From IMG/VR virus record IMGVR_UViG_3300025141_012580, positions 1 through 34,247 of that record: 34,247 nucleotides of DNA; one strand, written 5' to 3'. The notes under the pieces are model-generated. The model saw nothing but the letters and a program-made list of their open reading frames with translations. It did not search any database and was not told where the DNA came from. Below, one piece after another: positions 204 through 14,407 of this stretch. The number at the start of each line of letters is the position of its first letter. Position 1 is the stretch's first letter. Both the position numbers and the translations under genes were made by a program. This DNA comes from a virus.

Positions 204-644
204 TTAGTCTCCTCCGTAAGTTGCATATAGCTGTTCATCGTCAATAGCCGGCGAGATTGATGCGCCGAATTTTCTTTTAACCTTCTCGCTAATCGGTATC
301 GCCTCACCATCACCATCGATTCGTACGAAAGTCATGTCGGTTGTCAACACGGTCTTTTGCGAACCGTTATACACGCTGTGTCTTCTTGCTTCAAGGTGAA
401 TTATTATCGACCTATTTCCAACCCTTTGGACTTCGCCATAAATTTTAATAATTTGACCTGGGCGGACCGGCTTTTCAAATACTACCTCTGTTATTTTCTT
501 TGTAACCATGCGCGGCGTATCGCAGGCCTGACAGGCGAAGGCTGCGCCGGCCTCGTCAAGCCACGCTAACATAGTTCCTCCAAATAGGTTCCCGTGATAG
601 CCAACATTCGCGGCCTTACAAAAGTGTGTAGATATTAACTGCAT
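204..644 (-). CDS. Hotdog-fold acyl-CoA thioesterase (YciA/ACOT type)
   Basis: This protein of about 146 residues looks like a complete single hotdog domain. Such enzymes hydrolyse acyl-CoA to free fatty acid and CoA in the cytoplasm. The signature is N-L-F-G-G-x4-W-L-D-E near residues 19-31, with Asn19 and Asp30 as the likely active-site residues. It is followed by the usual VVFEKPVRPGQ strand-loop and a GNRSI strand. I chose the ATG at 644 because GGAG lies 9 bases upstream. The in-frame ATG at 659 would add five residues but has no ribosome site. The start lies inside the 3' end of the 907-residue gene (stop at 635), so translation is probably coupled. A metabolic enzyme of this type is unusual next to phage replication genes. 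The family call is firm; the substrate is unknown. Confidence 0.85.
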   Translation of the reverse strand: MQLISTHFCKAANVGYHGNLFGGTMLAWLDEAGAAFACQACDTPRMVTKKITEVVFEKPVRPGQIIKIYGEVQRVGNRSIIIHLEARRHSVYNGSQKTVLTTDMTFVRIDGDGEAIPISEKVKRKFGASISPAIDDEQLYATYGGD

Positions 645-3358
645 AAAAACTTTCTCCATTTATTGTACATGCGTGCTGTCTGCCTGTGCCTGACCTCGGT
701 TAGCTCAGAAGATCCTTCGGGCTCTTCTTGCCGCATACCTGAAGGCATCCTGAGTCTTTTCATAGTCTGCAGAGTGTTCATGAGAATTGTTTCTATTTCT
801 TCATCGCCGATCTCTTCAATGACAGTCTTAAACAGAGAAGCTATTTCATTCGGGAGTTCGTCGTGGGTCACCAGAACAAATTCGTATTTTATTCCTCCAG
901 GACCGACACTAGAACCCGTAGAGTGCTCATCAATATCTATGTAATATTCTATCCCAGTCTGTTTGCGAAGGGGATCGAGCATGCTCTTGCGTACGGCCTG
1001 GCGAAACTCTCGATCCTCCAGCACCATCTGTAAAACTTTCGGATTCATCTCGACCTCATCCGGATCGAATACATATTCGACAGTAGCCGTTATCTCGTAG
1101 ACCTCGTCAGGATCATGCGGATTGTCCGTCTTTACAGTCCAGGCGTTAGTTGGCCATGGCCATTCGCCATTCACGACCTCATGTGCTAGCTTTAAAAACT
1201 CACCGCCATGCATGTGACCTTCATTTTTATAGTGTCTGGTAATAATATGTTTAATTCCATCGTACATGTCATCAATCTTATTGATGGCCGCGCCAAAGGA
1301 TTCGACCTCATCTGCGTCGATGGCCCATCTCGGGAGTGTGTCTGGGGGTGTAATTTTTGTAGGATCTATCTTAAAGCCTAGCTGTATATTATCGCTTTGT
1401 GACCTTTGGCCTCCAGGACCCAGGTGTCGACGATGAATCCAGGAGCTATCTTTATCTGCCCAGAGCCAGCCAAAGTCGTTGAGTTCGCCGACGGGCCAGT
1501 GGGCGGTGTTGGGGAGAGGCAGTTTATCCCAATCATCAAGGTTCCAAGTGACTGTCATCCATGCCTTGAGAAAAATAATAATTTGGCCATCCTCGTCCTG
1601 GATGTCGGCCTCGATTTCGGCGGCTTGATAAAGATTATTCCACTTATCTACTATTACATCCACTTCTCTCTGCAGTTCGGCCATTTGGCCGGCTGTGAAC
1701 ATGGTGGGATCTAGATCGTCTTCTTCCTCTGTATCTTGTCCGACATTCCCTACAAATTGATCTTCTGGCAAACCCGTGAGTTGAGACATTAGTATTTTGC
1801 GGCCCGCGGGCATGGCCGTGTCTTCGTATGAGCCGCCGACGATGGCAAAATTATCCAGTTCTATCAAACCGTTTTCATCCCTTGGCATTTTAGAGAGAAC
1901 TTCTTCTTGATTTTCTCTGGCCCAAGACGCAACACGATCTACAAATCCAGGAATTTTCTTGCCATACACGCGCTTCTCCGGTACCGCTAACTGAGCTGTG
2001 CTCCAGTGTGGACCGTGTTCTGTATCAAGGCCGGCGCGCTGATCGAAATCGTAGGTAAACTTTCTAAGACGGACTCTGGAGACCGGATTTATGTCATATC
2101 CGCCGGCGCCTGATCTTTTATCGTCTGGAAAAAGTTCACCTTCTTGGATCTCTTGTTCTGCACTGTCTATATTACCAGTATTTGTAGCACTCAGCAAGTC
2201 TTTTGTTTCGACAACATACGCGACGGCGCCGTGGCCGTGAGCCTCTGCGACAGCACATTTATAATGGGTATCACCGCCGCCTCTAGACGGAGGAGTGTGG
2301 CACGATGTGATGTTTTCAAAGTCGCTCATGCGTAGAATATCAATGGGATCCCTTGTAATGATGATGGAATATTTATCATTTTCAAGCGTGCCAATATTTT
2401 CTTTGATCCACTTAGCTTTTTTTAGCCAATAGGTGCCCATATCTGCAAATCGAGTCTCGGGCGGCACTATTGGTTTTCTATCGCGGGGCTCTTGGCCATG
2501 GTTGCGGTCCTGCTTATCCTGATAATCTCTGCGCGACTGCTCATTGGCTGTCCACTCTGATTGATCAAGAGGATTCATCATGTATCTTCCAAGTGCGCGC
2601 TGGCTTGAAGTTCCGAGATACAACTCTAACTGATTTAGTACTTGGCGGTAGCGTTGCATCTCCTGTTCAGTAAGCGCTTCGAGAATGTCTCTCATCTCAT
2701 ACCGAAGCAGCCACCTGTCTCGATCGGTAGGCTCGATAGTGCCTGGGCCGTGCTTATGGTCGCCAAGCTTTTGTAGTATTTTTTTGTATTGTGTTGCAAG
2801 CTGGTCGACCTTGGCAAAGTACTTGCCGATCTTCATCTGAAATGCTTTTTTTATCACCTTGGCCGGCGCATGCCTGCCCATAGTTCGCTGAACCAGTTGC
2901 TCAAAATTTTCTTCTGAGTGTTCGTCCCACTCTCTCTTCGCGGAAGCTATACCCTTATTCCAGTCTATATTTAGTTTAAATGTCCTCTCAAGTTCGTTAA
3001 CGAACTTGCCTAGCTCCGATTCGCTATCTTTCACTGGGAATCTGGTAACGAGGCGGGTTTTTCCGCGAAATAAGTCATTGAACGCCAAATCTTCCGGGCC
3101 CATTTCATTAATGGCTCTCCGAATGTGTTCCACTTCGGCTTCAGATATCTCACGAAGGAGGCGTACACCTTCTCCCATAGGAGGAGCGGACTTACCAGAT
3201 GGTTTAGTCATACCTCTGACTCCAGGGCCCTCTCTTTTGTCGTTGCTTCCTGTATTCAGTAGGAAGTTCAGTTCGTCGGGAAGATCATCCCTCATCTCCC
3301 TTTGAAACGGTTCTTCTTCGGCCAGGAACTGGCGCCACTTAGTGTGAAAGTCAGACAT
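635..3358 (-). CDS. Large protein of unknown function (907 aa), possible virion-packaged protein
   Basis: I do not recognise the family. The N-terminus reads KWRQFLAEEE (residues 7-16), like a T4 capsid-targeting peptide with an L-A-E protease site. A charged helical region spans roughly residues 90-300. Around residues 340-400 there is a distinctive block with ITRDPIDILRMSD, then SCHTP, a GGG turn, and A-E-A-H-G-H-G before AYVVE. Its Cys and His residues could be catalytic or metal-binding, but I see no known active site. The C-terminal third is acidic and ends NKWRKFL-C-S. Those last bases also form the ribosome site of the thioesterase, so the C-terminal likeness may be chance. The start at 3358 has TTAGG just upstream and lies 14 bases after the exonuclease stop. 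A virion or injected protein is an inference from the N-terminal peptide only. Confidence 0.85.
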   Translation of the reverse strand: MSDFHTKWRQFLAEEEPFQREMRDDLPDELNFLLNTGSNDKREGPGVRGMTKPSGKSAPPMGEGVRLLREISEAEVEHIRRAINEMGPEDLAFNDLFRGKTRLVTRFPVKDSESELGKFVNELERTFKLNIDWNKGIASAKREWDEHSEENFEQLVQRTMGRHAPAKVIKKAFQMKIGKYFAKVDQLATQYKKILQKLGDHKHGPGTIEPTDRDRWLLRYEMRDILEALTEQEMQRYRQVLNQLELYLGTSSQRALGRYMMNPLDQSEWTANEQSRRDYQDKQDRNHGQEPRDRKPIVPPETRFADMGTYWLKKAKWIKENIGTLENDKYSIIITRDPIDILRMSDFENITSCHTPPSRGGGDTHYKCAVAEAHGHGAVAYVVETKDLLSATNTGNIDSAEQEIQEGELFPDDKRSGAGGYDINPVSRVRLRKFTYDFDQRAGLDTEHGPHWSTAQLAVPEKRVYGKKIPGFVDRVASWARENQEEVLSKMPRDENGLIELDNFAIVGGSYEDTAMPAGRKILMSQLTGLPEDQFVGNVGQDTEEEDDLDPTMFTAGQMAELQREVDVIVDKWNNLYQAAEIEADIQDEDGQIIIFLKAWMTVTWNLDDWDKLPLPNTAHWPVGELNDFGWLWADKDSSWIHRRHLGPGGQRSQSDNIQLGFKIDPTKITPPDTLPRWAIDADEVESFGAAINKIDDMYDGIKHIITRHYKNEGHMHGGEFLKLAHEVVNGEWPWPTNAWTVKTDNPHDPDEVYEITATVEYVFDPDEVEMNPKVLQMVLEDREFRQAVRKSMLDPLRKQTGIEYYIDIDEHSTGSSVGPGGIKYEFVLVTHDELPNEIASLFKTVIEEIGDEEIETILMNTLQTMKRLRMPSGMRQEEPEGSSELTEVRHRQTARMYNKWRKFLCS

Positions 3359-6189: not shown

Positions 6190-6975
6190 TCACGCATTCA
6201 TAAGTTCGTCAAATGCTCGGTCGACACTCGAAGTAGTGGACGCAGGCGGTACAGTAGAGGAAGAGTCGTTGGTATACTTCGTTGACTCTGTTGATGCCTG
6301 TTCGGCGCCGGAATCCCCTAACAGGAAAGCGTCCAACATAGCACCAACCTCCTCCGGAGTCTTTCTCTCAAAGAGAGAGTTAAAGTCTGGGATCGATTCC
6401 AGAAGCTCTGCACAGTATTCGTCTCCTCCGTTAGACTCATCGCACAACTGGCTTGGGCGTCGGCGAGGAGTGAGCTTCGTTTGCGGAAACGATGCGCCAG
6501 CTGGCTTACCGTAATGCAAGACGAGATCAGTGCCTGTATCTGGATCAGTGATATCACCGTACTCGGGATTAAGAACAAGGTTGATGAGTTGCTCATACAC
6601 CATCTTTCCAAAGCCCCAAACACGAACTCCCTTGGCCTCTTCACCCCTTACAATTACTGGGGCAAAAAACCGTTGGCGAGCCATCAGGTTTTTGGCCATT
6701 TTGATGCTTTCCTCAGTGCCCTCATTAAAAAGTTTGCGTACGAAAGCGTCAAGCGGATCATCTTCTCCAAAATTCTTCTTCGGACTTAAGAATCCAGAAT
6801 TATTTCCGACATTATAATGGAACCAGAAGTCCTTGAACGGATCTCCATCGGCGGTGGGAACAATGCGGATCGTCTGTTCTCCATCTTGAGGACGCCAGAA
6901 ATAGGATCCCCCTCCATTGCCTCTATGTTCAAGAGCCTGCTTTCGGGCCCTCATTTTACTCATATCAATTGCCAT
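6190..6975 (-). CDS. Single-stranded DNA-binding protein, T4 gp32-like
   Basis: This protein of 261 residues coats single-stranded DNA at the replication fork and in recombination. The N-terminus is basic (SKMRARKQALEHRG). It is followed by a core with YFWRPQDGEQTIRIVP, FKDFWFHYNVG and GVRVWGFGKMVYEQL, the last matching the KVFKYRFGKKIWDKI strand-helix of T4 gp32. The tail is Ser/Thr-rich with an acidic end (DRAFDELMNA), like the partner-binding C-terminus of gp32. The Cys/His zinc site of T4 gp32 is absent: the expected region reads GFLSPKKNFGEDDP. AAGGAG lies 9 bases before the ATG. The gene has its own strong promoter (7067-7095) and a structured leader that may be a translational operator. 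It is followed by uvsX. Confidence 0.85.
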   Translation of the reverse strand: MAIDMSKMRARKQALEHRGNGGGSYFWRPQDGEQTIRIVPTADGDPFKDFWFHYNVGNNSGFLSPKKNFGEDDPLDAFVRKLFNEGTEESIKMAKNLMARQRFFAPVIVRGEEAKGVRVWGFGKMVYEQLINLVLNPEYGDITDPDTGTDLVLHYGKPAGASFPQTKLTPRRRPSQLCDESNGGDEYCAELLESIPDFNSLFERKTPEEVGAMLDAFLLGDSGAEQASTESTKYTNDSSSTVPPASTTSSVDRAFDELMNA

Positions 6976-6996
6976 TTTTATTTTCTCCTTTTATTT

Positions 6997-7045
6997 TATT
7001 TGTGGCTGTTTGGCCTATAGTCGAGATGACAAATATTTCACCTCG
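6997..7045 (-). promoter_or_regulatory. Predicted pseudoknot in the ssb leader (candidate autoregulatory operator)
   Basis: In the transcript, CGAGGUGA (7045-7038) pairs with UCAUCUCG (7029-7022): eight pairs including one G-U. The 8-base loop is AAUAUUUG. Six loop bases, UAUUUG (7035-7030), are exactly complementary to CAAAUA at 7002-6997, giving an H-type pseudoknot. A 19-base linker separates the two stems. An A/U-rich unstructured stretch and the AAGGAG site (6990-6985) follow. The first stem lies 47-70 bases before the start codon. In T4 the gene 32 leader carries a pseudoknot in a similar place, where gp32 nucleates to repress its own translation. Pairing is read from the sequence; regulation is inferred by analogy. 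Confidence 0.6.
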
Positions 7046-7066
7046 CTAAAGTTGGTATACTATATA

Positions 7067-7095
7067 AATATATCCCATTTCAATTACTATGTCAA
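7067..7095 (-). promoter_or_regulatory. Sigma-70 promoter of ssb
   Basis: On the minus strand there is a perfect -35 TTGACA (7095-7090), a 17-base spacer and a -10 TATATT (7072-7067, 5 of 6 matches). A run of A residues lies just upstream of the -35. Transcription should start near 7060, giving a leader of about 85 bases before the SSB start. This is the best host-type promoter in the window and suggests early or middle expression by host RNA polymerase. Confidence 0.82.
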
Positions 7096-8259: not shown

Positions 8260-9456
8260 TTACCCTAACTCTCTCATACTTCCATAATCCACGCCGGCGC
8301 TAATGTTTATTTCAAAGTTTCCAAGAGCCGTTTCCGAGAAAGTTAATGCCAGGAGAGGAATAAGATCTTTTTCCTCATGTGACAGATCAATTATCACACT
8401 ATCGTGCATTGTGAATGCCACAAATGATTTACAATTTTGCAACAAGCTGTGTAACCTATACATCTGTTTTAGTGTATTGTCTGAACTAGTGCTTTGCACT
8501 AAGTAATTAATTGCATGATGCGAGTCTGCTTCTATTTTTCTTCCGAAGGGAGTGCTTATTACACCATTTGAGTAGTACATCCCTTCTATAAATGCTTTGT
8601 CATAATATTTATCTGGAGCATTGTCTGTAGAGTTAGGATTATACAGCCAAGCAAATATTTTCTTTTTTGCCTCGTCCCTTGTTACTCTATCATTGTATAT
8701 GTTCTTTACATTCCAAGCATGGATATCTTCTCTTGGCTGTTTTTGGTTGCTTAAAGATAAAATCGTTCTTAGCTCTGCGGCGTTAAAATCAAACTCCACA
8801 AACCAATCGTTTGTTGGTTTCAGAACGGAGCGATATTTCTTATCCATTGTTAAGATTGGAAAAGTACCTTTTTTTGTTGTGAGGCGGCCGGTCTTGGTGC
8901 CAAATATATTGTAATCACAAATCTGCTTACTCTGGCTTACCTTCTGTATGAAATTTTTTGCTGCAAGATTGTGGGCCTGATTCCTCAGTGCCGAGAGATC
9001 TAAATTTAGCGGCTGTCTTTTAATTTCCTCTAGCACTTTCGTTAGCCTTACTAAAAACATATAATTTTCTGGTCTTTGGTAATTGTCAAATACATATTTG
9101 GTTATGTCATTTCTTATATCATAGTAACTTAATAAGAACTTGTGGGGTACAAGATTGAAAAAACAATTTTCGTCCAACGACACCTTTGCTTCCATAAAAG
9201 ATCTCAAAAAAGCCTTCAATTTTGTTGTGTGGATATCTAATCGGTCTTGCAGGTGAGGAGGGCATACCTCTTCGAACGACTGCCCGGCACAGTATAAGCT
9301 TGCAAAGTCAATTCTACTGCTGTTAATGCCCTCAAGAGCGCTCGAATATTTCCATGTCTTGCTCAAGTTTTCTGGCAATTCTTCTTCAAAAAATAGTTTG
9401 CCGGCCGCACAGTATCCCATACAATCTATTTTATTATCTATCAGTTGAAATAACAA
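8260..9456 (-). CDS. Family A DNA polymerase, polymerase domain only
   Basis: This protein of 398 residues carries the Pol I palm and fingers: TGRLTT (189-194); motif A DFNAAELR (223-230, with metal-binding D223); motif B R260-x3-K264-x3-F268-x3-Y272; TPFGRK (302-307); the AINYLVQSTSSD helix (315-326); and motif C HDS (351-353, with metal-binding D352). Motif C is normally HDE, so the Glu is replaced by Ser; motif B has Ala in place of the usual Gly after Phe268. The 180 N-terminal residues show no 3'-5' exonuclease motifs, so proofreading appears absent. The start is TTG at 9456, with AAGGA 7 bases upstream. The 5' nuclease is a separate gene (3373-4338). T4-like phages usually carry a family B polymerase, so this is a mosaic. 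Confidence 0.9.
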   Translation of the reverse strand: MLFQLIDNKIDCMGYCAAGKLFFEEELPENLSKTWKYSSALEGINSSRIDFASLYCAGQSFEEVCPPHLQDRLDIHTTKLKAFLRSFMEAKVSLDENCFFNLVPHKFLLSYYDIRNDITKYVFDNYQRPENYMFLVRLTKVLEEIKRQPLNLDLSALRNQAHNLAAKNFIQKVSQSKQICDYNIFGTKTGRLTTKKGTFPILTMDKKYRSVLKPTNDWFVEFDFNAAELRTILSLSNQKQPREDIHAWNVKNIYNDRVTRDEAKKKIFAWLYNPNSTDNAPDKYYDKAFIEGMYYSNGVISTPFGRKIEADSHHAINYLVQSTSSDNTLKQMYRLHSLLQNCKSFVAFTMHDSVIIDLSHEEKDLIPLLALTFSETALGNFEINISAGVDYGSMRELG

Positions 9457-9472: not shown

Positions 9473-10786
9473 TTAATAATCAGTCGTTTCTATCGCAACA
9501 TTTGACTGATATTCTGACTGTTGTCGCTTTTCAAGCTTCTCTGCATTGGGTAAGAATTTTTGTGGAGGTAGCCGATTTTCAAATGCTTCGTTCTTAAACT
9601 GTTCATTAATATAACTCACTGCGGCCTCGATGTCAAGATTTTTTTCTACGCCAACGGCTGTTTTTGTTATTCTGTCTATAATATTTTCGGTAAACTTGCC
9701 AATAGATTCAACCGCTTTAATTTCACAGTAAAGTTTAATCCATTGGGATGTTTTTATTTTTTCGTTTAACTGATCTACTGTATATCTTGTTCGCTTTATT
9801 TTTATGGGAGTGGTTCCGCCGGCGGTGCACCTAGGTGATCTGCGCTTGGCCACGGGATTCTTGTCAACAAACCCATTCCACATTGCCAGTATAAGCTTCT
9901 TTATATTTTCGATATCGCCGTGGAGCGCTGCTGTATAATGAGTATTCCACAAGTCTTCTTTCGAGGTTAGCCTCTCTTCCATGTAGCCGGCCATGGCCGA
10001 GGAGTCGAGGTTCGCCACTATTTGCCACGGCGCATTTTTATTAATCATAAACCCGTGCTTTAATGCAGCTTGTCTATAGAAATCAAATATGATCTCGTTC
10101 ATGAATACGGACTTAGCCTCATCGTCATCAAATTTAGTATCCTTTAATATAATTGACAAGCCGCTATTGATTACGGAACAATGACTGGATGACAGAATCG
10201 AAGTATGGGTTATTGGAACTTTTTTCAATATCTCCTGGTTGCTTCGGATGTGTTGTGAGACCTTGTCCATAAATTGTTCTATTGTTACTAAATCATTAAG
10301 CCTTCTCCAGTGTGATTTGCCTGTTGCTCTATGATCAAAAATGCCCATTTCGATACTTCGGACTGTATACACAACCGCTATACTGGCAGCAATCGTATGA
10401 GGTTTCCACGCGCTGATGACTTTTAGATTTACATCATCTGCCGAGATGCCACAACGAGATTCTCTTACAAGAGTTTCAAACTCCTTTATAAAATTTTCAT
10501 AAGCGTCCACTACGAAGTCTGCAGCCCTATGCCCTGATGCCTTTTTGTCAGCGGGAGTGCTTTTAAAATATCTTGTGCGGCCCGGCTGGAGAATTACAAA
10601 ATTTCTTTTTTCATCTGTCCTGCCATAGAATGACAAGTCGGTTCCTACAAAGAAATCTTGAACTCCGGAGGTGAACACCCCATCCTCTGTTAGGAAAAGT
10701 GCACCATCTCTGTACTCTTTGCGGTTTTCGAATAGCGCCCTGGCCTGTTGGCTATTTTTCCCTTTAAAATCATATTCATTTGCCAT
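9473..10786 (-). CDS. Protein of unknown function at the structural/replication boundary (437 aa)
   Basis: I do not recognise a family. The first 80 residues look like small beta elements (GALFLTEDGVFTSG, NFVILQPGRTRYF). Residues 85-330 are mixed alpha/beta, including HGFMINKNAPWQIVANLDS and AALHGDIENIKKLILAMWNGF. A Cys/Gly/Arg-rich turn (RRSPRCTAGG) occurs near residue 320, followed by IKIKRTRYTVDQLN, and the C-terminal 80 residues are charged and helical. There is no signal peptide or membrane helix. The start follows the hub-like gene after three bases with a GGAG site, and the stop is 17 bases before polA. The spacing suggests a virion or assembly protein expressed with the baseplate genes, but that is only context. 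Confidence 0.8.
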   Translation of the reverse strand: MANEYDFKGKNSQQARALFENRKEYRDGALFLTEDGVFTSGVQDFFVGTDLSFYGRTDEKRNFVILQPGRTRYFKSTPADKKASGHRAADFVVDAYENFIKEFETLVRESRCGISADDVNLKVISAWKPHTIAASIAVVYTVRSIEMGIFDHRATGKSHWRRLNDLVTIEQFMDKVSQHIRSNQEILKKVPITHTSILSSSHCSVINSGLSIILKDTKFDDDEAKSVFMNEIIFDFYRQAALKHGFMINKNAPWQIVANLDSSAMAGYMEERLTSKEDLWNTHYTAALHGDIENIKKLILAMWNGFVDKNPVAKRRSPRCTAGGTTPIKIKRTRYTVDQLNEKIKTSQWIKLYCEIKAVESIGKFTENIIDRITKTAVGVEKNLDIEAAVSYINEQFKNEAFENRLPPQKFLPNAEKLEKRQQSEYQSNVAIETTDY

Positions 10787-10789
10787 TAT

Positions 10790-13700
10790 TTAGTCTCCAG
10801 CCTCGGGAGTGCCCGGGTCGCCGAACGGTAACTCGCTAGCAGGGCCGGACCCAGGCTCGCCCGAAAGTGGCGCGATGGATAGTGCAAACGACGACGCGTC
10901 TTCAGAGGTAATGCGGGCGCCTTTTGCGAGTAGATTTTGTTCATTTCCGGAGGAAGCCTTGCAGATATCAAGTCTACCGGCAGAATGCCACACACACTTT
11001 AAAGTAGTTTCATAGAACTCTGCGGTGATAGTACTCTCAATATCCAGCACGACATAGTATCCGCCTAGGCCCAACAACAAAGCAGCATCAGTATAATCGG
11101 TGCCAAAATCGCCAGAACCAACACTGTCTGGATTTATGTATATATATTGTCCCGGCAGAAAGAAGGTGTTCCCCTGCATTATAACCGTTGCCTCATATCT
11201 CCCTCTCAGCTGATTATATCCAAAAGCTCCGTGACCCATAAGTCTTGCCTCGGCAAGGTATTCTTGATCTGTTCGTGTAAATTTAATACTCTTGATCATG
11301 CCCTGGTTTTGGCCTAAATAAAAATGAAATATTCCGCGAGACAAATCCCCTGGCATGGTTGGATTGTCGGCATATGCTTCTCCTAGCTGGGACTCAATCC
11401 AGCCGCCGGGCTCAGATGCCGCCTCCGCCTCTTCGTCGGTCTCTAGGCCCAATAAAGTAGACGACTCATAGCCCCGGGCATAAATAGCTATAAAGTGAAA
11501 AACTTCTGTATTGTCTTCGCTCGTTTCGAACAGAGATGTCTTGGGACTATCAGGATTCATGGCATCTCCCGCCAGAGCATTCATAATTTTATTAACATCG
11601 ATACGATAATTCGGCTCCTCGCCATCTGGAGGATCTGGATTTATGTACATCTCTGGCGAGGTTATAAATGATGCAGGATTTTCATACTCTTCCGTCTCCG
11701 GATTGTAATAGGCTGGAAGCGTAAAATTAGTAATTCCGATATCGAAGGTCTGCTCGGTAAAGTTCGACTGGGCGGGACTAGCATAACATCCTCTACCACC
11801 TAAAATATCTAACACCAAATCGTTTAATGTGTCATTTATAAATTGTTTTAAGTTATAGCTATAGACGCCCGGGCGTTGAATTTTGTTGATAAAAAACTCA
11901 TTCCATCTGGCCAAAGATATTGGAATGTCTGCGAGATTGACATCTCTTGTAATTCCTTTAACGGGATCAAAATATTCTACCGAACCAACTACAATATTAA
12001 GCTTATCAAACTTCCTCTCTTTCATGTTATCTAGTCTTTTTATAGCATCATATATTGTAACTGTTTGTTGATTTTGTGATGCATCTCCCATTGACTGCGG
12101 TACCGACGGGCCCATGATGCTACCGCCGGTATTGTTTGTCTGGCCTGGGACTGGGTTACTGTCTGCTTCAGGAGTATTTGGAGCTTCATAAAAAAGATCA
12201 AGAGCTGATAACGATCCAAAATACTGATATAAGCGATCTTGGGCGGCGCCGGCCTGTTTGGCCATATCGGAAAATGTATCTAGAGCGACATAAAATTGAT
12301 CTGGTGTAAAGGGAGGGCGCCACAAAGCTTTTCTGATTGCCCAATCCAACAGATCTCCGTAATAAATATATCTGAGCGGATAGGTGTTATTACCCACAGC
12401 CTGCTTGGTGGCAGCATCCTGATCGCCAACAGGATTTCCGCTGCCAAGATTGAGATCGTGCAACACCTGTCTTGTAACAGTGCTGTTAATAGCCCGCTGA
12501 GAGATGTGTGACTGCTGTTCATTGCCGGTGGCCAGCCCGGGTGACATTCCTTCGCCGATGGCCTGATCCATTTGTTCCCCGATTTCCCGGGCCTGCTCAT
12601 CATCGAGCGCTATCGAGCCCGGGGCGATTCCGGTGCCAGCCAAGGCCCCGGAGGAGCCCATGCCCGTGTCTAGGGAGAGGGTGCGGTCATTGCCCCCCGT
12701 GTCTTGTTGGGCCCACGGAGGCTCAACAAAAGTAATGGAAGTAACATCCTCGGCGCCGGTGGCGTTCTCGGTTTCCCGGCCGACAGCCATTGGATCAACT
12801 AAAATTGTTTTAATTCTAGATAGTCCAAGATGCGCACCTGGCCATCCCGTGCCTGGTATCGTTGTCAGGCCTCCGTGGTCGGCGCCGTGGGGGTAAGCAT
12901 AGCTCAGGGGCCACGGTGCACCGTATAATCCGGCCGGAGGCGTTCCTCCAGCATAGGCACTATCCGAAAAGGCTACGAGCCTCGTGAAGCCGGTTTGGGG
13001 GTCCTGGAGATGGCCACCGGCATTGCCGCCGGTGGCGGTGGCGGAATAATCTACAGGATCTTCTTTCAACTTTCTGCCGCGGTTGGTAACAACCCGGGTT
13101 TCGCCAAGATGTTGATCATTCAATGTTGGAATGTATGTTTCGTCCCATAACCATTTTTGTAATGTAGCATATCCCATGCCTCTCGTCAGGCCGCGCATTT
13201 CGTTTAGATGACTTATAAGTGCATCTTTCAGGCCCTCGTCGCTCAACTCATTGGCGGGCCCTTTGGATAGGCCCGCTCGCTGGGTGCCGCGGGCGGTGGG
13301 ATCGGCACTAGCTTCATATGCATTTTGCGGATCCGCTCTAATGTTCCCGTCTCCCGATACTATTTGATCGTCGCCAGTTTCCAATGCCTCTATCATTGCT
13401 TCAATCTGCGCCTGTCTCGTTCTTTCGAACACGGTTAAAAACAGGTCTGTATTTCTATCTTCTAATATGCCTTCGATTGCGGCCTTATACGATATATCAA
13501 GGCTCATGGTACCATCTTCGTTATAGGAAATAACATGATCATAGATTGTTAAGTATAATATTATGCTAGCACTTTTCAAATTTTGCCTTTGTGCTGGACT
13601 GAAAGGCGCGCCGTCCTTAAATTCCCAGCCGACCACGGCTTTAAGCTCAAAATACTCTGGATCATACAACCACATCCATTTACAGAAAGCCTCACTATCC

Positions 13701-14407
13701 GCATCGCTAACACCGCGAGGGACCGAAGCTTCTCCGGTGCTGGCTGTACGCATTATCAAATCTGCGAACTGGAAGTAACAGTCTTCTTTTTCTGCCAGAG
13801 TCCCGTCTTCCTTGGGTTCGGGAGGGTTTAATGTTGCTGAGAACGGGCCGCGCTTTTCAAATAATTCTCGGATATCATTAAGGTGTATGCTCAAATTCGC
13901 ACTTAAAAGATTGGCGGCCTCTGCCGGGTTTGTACCCTCATATTTCCAGCTAAACCCTCTTATACCCACTCCCGTGCCGCGGCCTGCGCGGTCAGACAAC
14001 ATCCTTTCTACTGGATTAGAGTGTTCTGCTAGTGCAGTGTTTTCTATGATTCCCGGGAAATTGTCAGCAAATAATAGTTCAACATCCCAAGTTTTGTCTT
14101 CGTGTTCGGCGCCGGGCTGGCCGAGATAAGTTTTGTATAGTCTAATTTTTGGTACTAAGAACGAAAGTTGGTATGGGGTAAGGTGTAATAACGAAGCCAG
14201 ATCCGATCTGCCTGTTAAGGCGCTCATCATCTCTGTCGGTTTGCCCTTAATTGGTATAAAGGATGTATATTTACAGTTTTCGTTAAAATGAGCTATGCCT
14301 ATCCCGTCGCCCTCATCGTCTGGGAGGGCCCCCTCTAACAGGTAATGTAGCAATAGGCATTGCTCATTTTTCTTTCTCCTCGCTAACCGGCTATCCGAAA
14401 CTGACAT
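10790..14407 (-). CDS. Very large baseplate hub-like structural protein (1205 aa)
   Basis: This large protein is probably part of the baseplate hub. The C-terminal 300 residues have the features of hub/gpD-like domains: a strand-rich region with IKSIKFTRTDQEYLAEARLM, then GRYEATVIMQGNTFFLPGQY followed by IYINP, and LGLGGYYVVLDIES. That PGQ-x-IYI-x-P...LGLGGYY pattern is typical of tail proteins that complete a beta barrel. The middle (about residues 450-780) is a low-complexity region rich in Gly, Ala, Pro and Thr with many turns. The N-terminal part (ALTGRSDLASLLHLTPYQLSFLVPKIRLYK) is helical. It lies after the LysM protein with a GGAG site. T4 gp27 and gp5 are far shorter, so this could be a fusion or an expanded hub. 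The exact equivalent is uncertain. Confidence 0.75.
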   Translation of the reverse strand: MSVSDSRLARRKKNEQCLLLHYLLEGALPDDEGDGIGIAHFNENCKYTSFIPIKGKPTEMMSALTGRSDLASLLHLTPYQLSFLVPKIRLYKTYLGQPGAEHEDKTWDVELLFADNFPGIIENTALAEHSNPVERMLSDRAGRGTGVGIRGFSWKYEGTNPAEAANLLSANLSIHLNDIRELFEKRGPFSATLNPPEPKEDGTLAEKEDCYFQFADLIMRTASTGEASVPRGVSDADSEAFCKWMWLYDPEYFELKAVVGWEFKDGAPFSPAQRQNLKSASIILYLTIYDHVISYNEDGTMSLDISYKAAIEGILEDRNTDLFLTVFERTRQAQIEAMIEALETGDDQIVSGDGNIRADPQNAYEASADPTARGTQRAGLSKGPANELSDEGLKDALISHLNEMRGLTRGMGYATLQKWLWDETYIPTLNDQHLGETRVVTNRGRKLKEDPVDYSATATGGNAGGHLQDPQTGFTRLVAFSDSAYAGGTPPAGLYGAPWPLSYAYPHGADHGGLTTIPGTGWPGAHLGLSRIKTILVDPMAVGRETENATGAEDVTSITFVEPPWAQQDTGGNDRTLSLDTGMGSSGALAGTGIAPGSIALDDEQAREIGEQMDQAIGEGMSPGLATGNEQQSHISQRAINSTVTRQVLHDLNLGSGNPVGDQDAATKQAVGNNTYPLRYIYYGDLLDWAIRKALWRPPFTPDQFYVALDTFSDMAKQAGAAQDRLYQYFGSLSALDLFYEAPNTPEADSNPVPGQTNNTGGSIMGPSVPQSMGDASQNQQTVTIYDAIKRLDNMKERKFDKLNIVVGSVEYFDPVKGITRDVNLADIPISLARWNEFFINKIQRPGVYSYNLKQFINDTLNDLVLDILGGRGCYASPAQSNFTEQTFDIGITNFTLPAYYNPETEEYENPASFITSPEMYINPDPPDGEEPNYRIDVNKIMNALAGDAMNPDSPKTSLFETSEDNTEVFHFIAIYARGYESSTLLGLETDEEAEAASEPGGWIESQLGEAYADNPTMPGDLSRGIFHFYLGQNQGMIKSIKFTRTDQEYLAEARLMGHGAFGYNQLRGRYEATVIMQGNTFFLPGQYIYINPDSVGSGDFGTDYTDAALLLGLGGYYVVLDIESTITAEFYETTLKCVWHSAGRLDICKASSGNEQNLLAKGARITSEDASSFALSIAPLSGEPGSGPASELPFGDPGTPEAGD

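What the first reader, a model, noticed from the sequence alone, without database searches (positions are those of the whole stretch)
6976..7060. ssb leader folds into a predicted pseudoknot like the T4 gene 32 operator
Seen: an 8-pair stem (7045-7038 with 7029-7022) whose loop bases UAUUUG are exactly complementary to CAAAUA at 7002-6997. An unstructured A/U-rich stretch and the ribosome site follow. Known: T4 gp32 represses its own translation by binding a leader pseudoknot roughly 40-70 bases upstream of the start and spreading over the ribosome site. Inferred: this phage has the same control by different sequences, even though its SSB lacks the gp32 zinc site and its polymerase is of another family.
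Basis: partly seen in the sequence, partly recalled or inferred. Interest (0 to 1): 0.82.

Follow-up and report, generated by a model that had tools for sequence, protein, structure and literature searches.

The report
Conserved RNA hairpin controlling phage ssb
The mRNA of a marine phage's single-stranded-DNA-binding protein begins with an RNA hairpin that nearly all of the phage's close relatives keep by compensating mutations, most likely a docking site through which the protein limits its own synthesis, although the pseudoknot first proposed is not supported.

Summary
The 8-pair stem at 7045-7038/7029-7022 is real and is the core of a strongly conserved RNA element. Of 93 distinct ssb leaders from related viral contigs, 88 carry it. 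Consensus: AG-(8 bp)-[RANAUUNR]-(8 bp)-A-CU-NWA. 99.3% of stem cells pair (68.9% shuffled), all eight variable pairs show compensatory changes, and all exceed a tree-based null. Loop bases A2, A4 and U6, the 5' AG and the 3' CU are invariant. In whole viral records (up to 184 kb) the element occurs once each, at ssb, in 30 of 33. No Rfam family matches.

The pseudoknot is not supported. The UAUUUG/CAAAUA match exists, but the loop is conserved in sequence while its partner is not. Across 78 leaders, loop complementarity equals the shuffled expectation (4.0 vs 3.9 pairs), and the window's own 6-base match is reached by 30% of shuffles.

Best explanation: a hairpin translational operator through which the gp32-fold SSB represses its own mRNA, nucleating on the loop and spreading over the A-rich ribosome site. 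It works like T4 gene 32 control but with a different RNA; by architecture it is nearer the T4 gene 43 operator. Structure and restriction to ssb are shown; SSB binding is inferred.

The parts
6190..6975 (-). ssb, 261 aa, gp32-fold single-stranded-DNA-binding protein
   Evidence: Pfam gp32 6.7e-13; PHROG 1192 ssDNA-binding protein 1.6e-23; AlphaFold model matches T4 gp32 1gpc 3.7e-10 and RB69 2a1k
7067..7095 (-). sigma-70-type promoter TTGACA-17-TATATT
   Evidence: 11 of 12 matches; promoters in the same place in 53 of 76 relatives against 2% at random places. In the window the -10 box lies about 12 nt further upstream of the hairpin than in most relatives
7019..7047 (-). conserved operator-like hairpin with its clamp: AG / 8 bp / 8-nt loop / 8 bp / bulged A / CU
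   Evidence: covariation in 74 distinct sequences, tree-based null, model R1 matches 7014-7049 at E 4e-9
7038..7045 (-). 5' arm of the 8-bp stem, CGAGGUGA
7030..7037 (-). 8-nt loop AAUAUUUG (consensus RANAUUNR; A2, A4 and U6 invariant)
7022..7029 (-). 3' arm of the 8-bp stem, UCAUCUCG
7016..7021 (-). conserved 3' flank ACUAUA (consensus ACUNWA): bulged A, then CU pairing with AG at 7047-7046, then NWA
   Evidence: CU invariant in 74 of 74, A (7021) in 72, A (7016) in 73
7004..7015 (-). small second hairpin GGC-CAAACA-GCC
   Evidence: a hairpin here in 51 of 80 leaders against 10.3 in shuffles, with variants GAC/GUC, GGGU/ACCC, GAGU/ACUC
6997..7002 (-).
   Evidence: not conserved, chance-level
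6985..6990 (-). ribosome-binding site AAGGAG in an A-rich stretch
   Evidence: last 25 nt before AUG mostly unpaired in models of 83 leaders, mean 0.74

Best explanation
The leader carries a 29-nt RNA operator: a hairpin with 8 bp, an 8-nt loop RANAUUNR and a base clamp AG/CU with one bulged A. The phage's own gp32-fold SSB, when in excess over single-stranded DNA, binds this hairpin (loop and bulge as the specific contacts), nucleates cooperative binding into the A-rich single-stranded stretch 3' of it, covers the Shine-Dalgarno region and stops translation of ssb. Shown: the structure, its sequence-constrained loop, its attachment to ssb alone, and an A-rich mostly unpaired path to the ribosome site. 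Inferred: that the ligand is SSB, that binding represses translation, and that spreading bridges the 20-56 nt to the AUG.
For: 88 of 93 distinct leaders of this ssb family have the hairpin (80 strictly, 8 with a 7-bp stem, an extra bulge or a lost pair); 0 of 1860 shuffled leaders pass the strict scan. Covariation: 99.3% of cells paired, 8 of 8 variable pairs with double changes, score 0.895 vs 0.287 shuffled and at most 0.250 for slid versions; mutual information of all 8 pairs exceeds all 1000 simulations on the SSB tree. Loop and flank invariants point to specific recognition. Exactly one significant copy per whole record, always at ssb, in 30 of 33 records up to 184 kb: the ligand has one target, which fits autogenous control and not a multi-gene regulator. 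The hairpin stays with ssb whether the transcript starts at it (-10 box ends 8-9 nt before the stem in 46 loci) or it follows the stop codon of an upstream gene, and with seven different families of upstream gene. Where a gene has been inserted between promoter and ssb (L066), ssb kept its own copy. The five leaders without it fall into three lineages, which sit on the three longest branches of the ssb tree. The SSB has the gp32 fold of a known mRNA autorepressor (PMC535899, PMC3014915).
Against: No binding or expression data. The longest-branch correlation is post hoc and partly general divergence: relative to RecA it is strong for L307/L324 (0.72 vs 0.18), modest for L074 (0.61 vs 0.40), absent for L263/L268 (0.50 vs 0.72). 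The UAAA/UUAAA repeats that T4 gp32 uses for spreading are hardly enriched. Helix-to-AUG distance varies widely (20-56 nt). More distant gp32-like families (Mel-JY01, immuto, SPO1, Syn19) lack this hairpin.
Confidence: 0.66

Rival explanations
1. The hairpin is the operator of another protein, a phage-encoded or host RNA-binding regulator that acts on ssb mRNA alone (repressor or activator).
For: A sequence-constrained loop and bulged A say only that something specific binds. Host factors are possible since many copies sit at a host-type promoter.
Against: One copy per genome, always in cis to ssb, is unusual for a general regulator. The SSB fold already has a known autorepressor.
Confidence: 0.17
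2. The hairpin is a 5'-end stabiliser or an RNase processing signal of the ssb mRNA, without a dedicated protein ligand.
For: In 46 loci the -10 box ends 8-9 nt before the stem, so the mRNA would start at or next to the hairpin. T4 gene 32 mRNA is itself very stable and RNase E processed (PMC3014915, read).
Against: A stabiliser does not need an invariant A-N-A-U/G-U loop, a never-A.A 1/8 pair or a bulged A with invariant CU. The hairpin persists in intercistronic positions.
Confidence: 0.1
3. One reading: loop UAUUUG pairs with CAAAUA to form an H-type pseudoknot like T4 gene 32.
For: The 6-base match exists and is sterically possible in the window; L272 has the same match.
Against: Loop complementarity across 78 leaders 4.0 vs 3.9 expected; the partner is absent in nearly all; 30% of shuffles of the window leader do as well. 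Loop conservation in sequence rather than by covariation.
Confidence: 0.03
4. The palindrome works as DNA, as a single-strand initiation hairpin or part of a replication origin, hence one copy per genome.
For: One copy per genome beside replication genes.
Against: Fixed orientation and place within 45-80 nt of the ssb AUG with seven different upstream neighbours. G-U pairs occur in the stem on the mRNA strand. In L066 the copy stays with ssb after an insertion.
Confidence: 0.04

Closest known systems
T4/T2/RB69 gene 32 translational operator (gp32 autorepression)
   Same: gp32-fold SSB; a structured RNA element some tens of nucleotides upstream of the AUG (T4 pseudoknot 67 nt upstream, window hairpin 70 to 47 nt upstream) followed by an A-rich unstructured stretch over the ribosome site (PMC535899, PMC3014915).
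   Different: No pseudoknot; a plain hairpin with a conserved 8-nt loop and bulged A; no UUAAA repeats; no zinc site in the protein.
T4/RB69 gene 43 (DNA polymerase) translational operator
   Same: A hairpin with a conserved loop about 40 nt upstream of the AUG, no pseudoknot, autogenous repressor that is a replication protein (PMC3014915, read).
   Different: It belongs to the polymerase gene, has other loop bases (UAAC) and a shorter hairpin (16-18 nt); here the element is at ssb only and the polymerase is of family A.
Rfam RF02980 freshwater-2 RNA
   Same: A leader ending in AAAGGAGAAAA-N-AAUG; best Rfam hit in the window.
   Different: 20.0 bits against a gathering score of 49.9; three hairpins of other shape; most of the score seems to come from the ribosome site.
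MS2-type phage coat-protein operator (from memory)
   Same: Hairpin with a single bulged A and a sequence-read loop bound by a phage protein that represses translation.
   Different: 4-nt loop, bulge inside the upper stem, unrelated protein; no homology claimed or tested.

Membership tests
T4-type gene 32 operator | downstream gene encodes a gp32-fold SSB | tested here: met
T4-type gene 32 operator | H-type RNA pseudoknot, second stem conserved | tested here: not met
   chance-level, partner not conserved
T4-type gene 32 operator | UUAAA/UAAA repeats between structure and AUG | tested here: not met
   UAAA 0.58 vs 0.49 shuffled, UUAAA in 11% of leaders; the window itself has three UAAA and no UUAAA
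T4-type gene 32 operator | SSB binds the leader and represses its translation | not testable with these tools
   needs binding and translation assays
T4-type gp32 protein | Cys/His zinc site in the core | tested here: not met
   only H53 is an invariant Cys/His position; C178 and C188 in about 75 of 94 rows and no others
T4-type gene 43 operator | hairpin with conserved loop upstream of the AUG, no pseudoknot | tested here: met
T4-type gene 43 operator | located at the DNA polymerase gene | tested here: not met
   at ssb only
any Rfam 15 family | score at or above the family's gathering score | tested here: not met
   no hit to the hairpin above threshold in the window or nine relatives

The most novel reading that the evidence does not exclude
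A previously undescribed RNA family: a hairpin operator read in its 8-nt loop by a zinc-less gp32-fold SSB, so that autogenous control of phage SSBs has been built on at least two unrelated RNA architectures (pseudoknot in T4, looped hairpin with bulged A here) and can be lost as the SSB diverges.
Probability: 0.58. Interest if true: 0.75.

Novelty: new variant of a known kind. Interest (0 to 1): 0.62.

Why it matters
Reviews of T4 post-transcriptional control state that the gene 32 pseudoknot may be the only viral pseudoknot used in translational autoregulation, that phage RB49 lacks it, and that autocontrol in diverse relatives needs study (PMC3014915, PMC535899). Here is a large uncultured marine phage family with gp32-fold SSBs in which a different, very strongly covarying RNA takes that place. 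It gives an exact consensus to test by mutation, natural knock-outs (three lineages without it), and a way to ask how a sequence-indifferent ssDNA-binding protein comes to read one RNA. If the ligand proves to be another protein, it is still a new phage mRNA element.

Tried and rejected
Pseudoknot stem 2: tested against shuffles across 78 leaders, rejected. Membership in Rfam: only sub-threshold hits. A regulon reading (same hairpin at several genes): rejected by whole-record searches; the only convincing second copy is in L066/L298, at an inserted gene between promoter and ssb. The other four extra hits of the pattern scan (L018, L275, L287, L303; 6 of 8 pairs) lack the conserved NWA flank and were set aside as likely chance. 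DNA neighbours in named phages: none by blastn; by protein only distant ones, whose ssb leaders do not show this hairpin. A consensus structure for the Mel-JY01-like leaders: none found by RNAalifold. Host: one relative (L327) in a MAG labelled WOR-3, but with a shortened RecA next to cellular genes, so a join or a remnant; not used as host evidence. Literature searches found no description of this element in the open library; subscription papers and Rfam source papers could not be read.

Full report
What is there. The gene (6190-6975) encodes a 261-aa protein of Pfam gp32 and PHROG 1192. Its AlphaFold model (mean pLDDT 81) matches T4 gp32 1gpc (E 3.7e-10) and the RB69 protein 2a1k. It has no Cys/His set that could be the T4 zinc site. 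A RecA-like recombinase and a 5'-3' exonuclease gene lie downstream, a family A polymerase gene upstream; the record is a 34-kb viral contig with contractile-tail genes.

Relatives. tblastn-confirmed relatives were fetched from IMG/VR and their ssb starts located. Of 93 distinct leaders of the window's ssb family, 80 contain AG-N8-RANAKUNR-N8-N-CU with at least 7 of 8 pairs; none of 1860 shuffled leaders does. Eight more have a 7-bp stem, an extra bulged base or a lost pair (L035, L041, L058, L068, L071, L265, L274, L293; listed). Five leaders in three lineages lack it (L074; L263 and L268; L307 and L324).

Structure. 74 distinct 36-mers align without a gap. The structure is A-G, eight pairs, an 8-nt loop, eight pairs, one unpaired A, then C-U pairing with the A-G. 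99.3% of cells are standard pairs against 68.9% when shuffled; 276 cells carry changes on both sides against 97.5; slid versions reach at most 53% paired. Because related sequences can inflate such counts, I simulated columns independently along an SSB tree with matched rates and composition: mutual information of each of the eight pairs exceeded every one of 1000 simulations. A caveat: the sequences were picked with a finder that rewards pairing, but 83 of 93 real leaders passed it against 94 of 1860 (5%) shuffled ones. The AG/CU clamp never varies, so it has no covariation support of its own; the window fold includes it.

Sequence constraints. Loop positions 2 (A), 4 (A) and 6 (U) are invariant; position 5 is U or G; positions 1 and 8 are purines in the combinations G.A, A.G and G.G, never A.A (5 of 3178 tree simulations lack A.A), which suggests a purine-purine closing pair. 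The pairs next to the loop are always Y-R, R-Y, R-Y with one exception. The flank is ACUNWA in nearly all. Constraints of this kind in a loop are what a protein contact produces; they are not what a pseudoknot loop whose role is base pairing would show.

Pseudoknot test. For 78 leaders the longest Watson-Crick match between the 8-nt loop and the sequence 3' of the stem averages 4.0, against 3.9 for dinucleotide shuffles; the window's 6-base match is equalled by 30% of its shuffles; only L272 shares CAAAUA pairing with UAUUUG. The second pairing is therefore best seen as a by-product of a U-rich loop and an A-rich leader. It could still form in this one phage. A different small hairpin does follow in 51 of 80 leaders (10.3 in shuffles), in the window GGC-CAAACA-GCC at 7015-7004.

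Where it sits. In 53 of 76 loci a promoter of at least 9/12 lies just upstream (2% at random places), and in 46 of these the -10 box ends 8-9 nt before the stem, so transcription should begin at or next to the AG. The window's promoter (TTGACA-17-TATATT) lies about 12 nt further up. In other loci there is no promoter there and the hairpin follows the UAG stop of the upstream gene, the stop sharing the conserved AG. The upstream genes fall into seven unrelated families. The hairpin-to-AUG distance is 20-56 nt (median 34), the linker is 52% A and the last 25 nt before the AUG are mostly unpaired in models.

One copy, at ssb. A covariance model searched in 33 whole records, up to 184 kb, found one significant match in each of 30, at ssb, and none in the records of L263, L307 and L324; one further hit in G002 has E 0.56 and counts as chance. 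In L066 a second copy stands behind the promoter in front of an inserted ORF (2268-2894) whose end runs into the ssb copy. The three lineages without the hairpin are the three longest branches of the ssb tree; against the neighbouring RecA, the SSB-specific speed-up is clear only for L307/L324. I read this as suggestive of protein-RNA co-evolution, not as proof.

Mechanism. T4 gp32 binds a pseudoknot upstream of gene 32 and spreads through an unstructured A+U-rich stretch over the ribosome site when SSB exceeds ssDNA (PMC535899, PMC3014915). Here a gp32-fold SSB, a single cis-located RNA element with a protein-like recognition loop, and an A-rich mostly unpaired path to the ribosome site make the same logic the most economical reading (0.66). 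The varying distance favours nucleation plus spreading over simple steric blocking. Rivals are another protein ligand (0.17), an mRNA stabiliser or processing signal (0.10), a DNA-level element (0.04) and the pseudoknot (0.03).

Relation to known systems. Membership in the T4 gene 32 operator class is not claimed: its defining pseudoknot was tested and not met. It works, most likely, like that operator, and by architecture resembles the gene 43 operator, a hairpin with a conserved loop and no pseudoknot. No Rfam family matches and no paper in the open library describes it. Hence: new variant of a known kind, with a new RNA family as its substance.

Noticed in passing
L108-L160 (Mel-JY01-like marine ssb leaders): A different element: an invariant GGUUA(C/U) within small hairpins (AUCAAG-GUUAUA-CUUGAU or GUUAC-GAAA-GUAAC) just after a Bacteroidota-like promoter, again close to the likely 5' end of the ssb mRNA. 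No consensus structure from RNAalifold.
   Followed up: partly
L066:2198-2894 (same contig as L298): Second copy of the hairpin behind the promoter, then an inserted ORF of 208 aa without family match whose 3' end encodes part of the ssb hairpin, recalling T4 segG overlapping the gene 32 pseudoknot.
   Followed up: partly
L263 and L268 ssb leaders: The conserved hairpin is replaced by an unrelated one, AGAGGGUC-AAGCCAAA-GACCCUCC, also with an 8-nt loop; possibly a changed operator.
   Followed up: no
L327 (CP070664.1, MAG labelled candidate division WOR-3): A piece of a related phage (family A polymerase, ssb with hairpin, RecA shortened to 277 aa) directly beside cellular genes (2-thiouracil desulfurase, TspO, ScpA): assembly join or prophage remnant.
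   Followed up: partly
window 8260-9456 (-): A very short (398 aa) family A DNA polymerase; the next ORF 9473-10786 (437 aa) has no family match and could hold missing parts.
   Followed up: no
window 10790-14407 (-) and 635-3358 (-): Large ORFs (1205 and 907 aa) with no PHROG or Pfam match.
   Followed up: no
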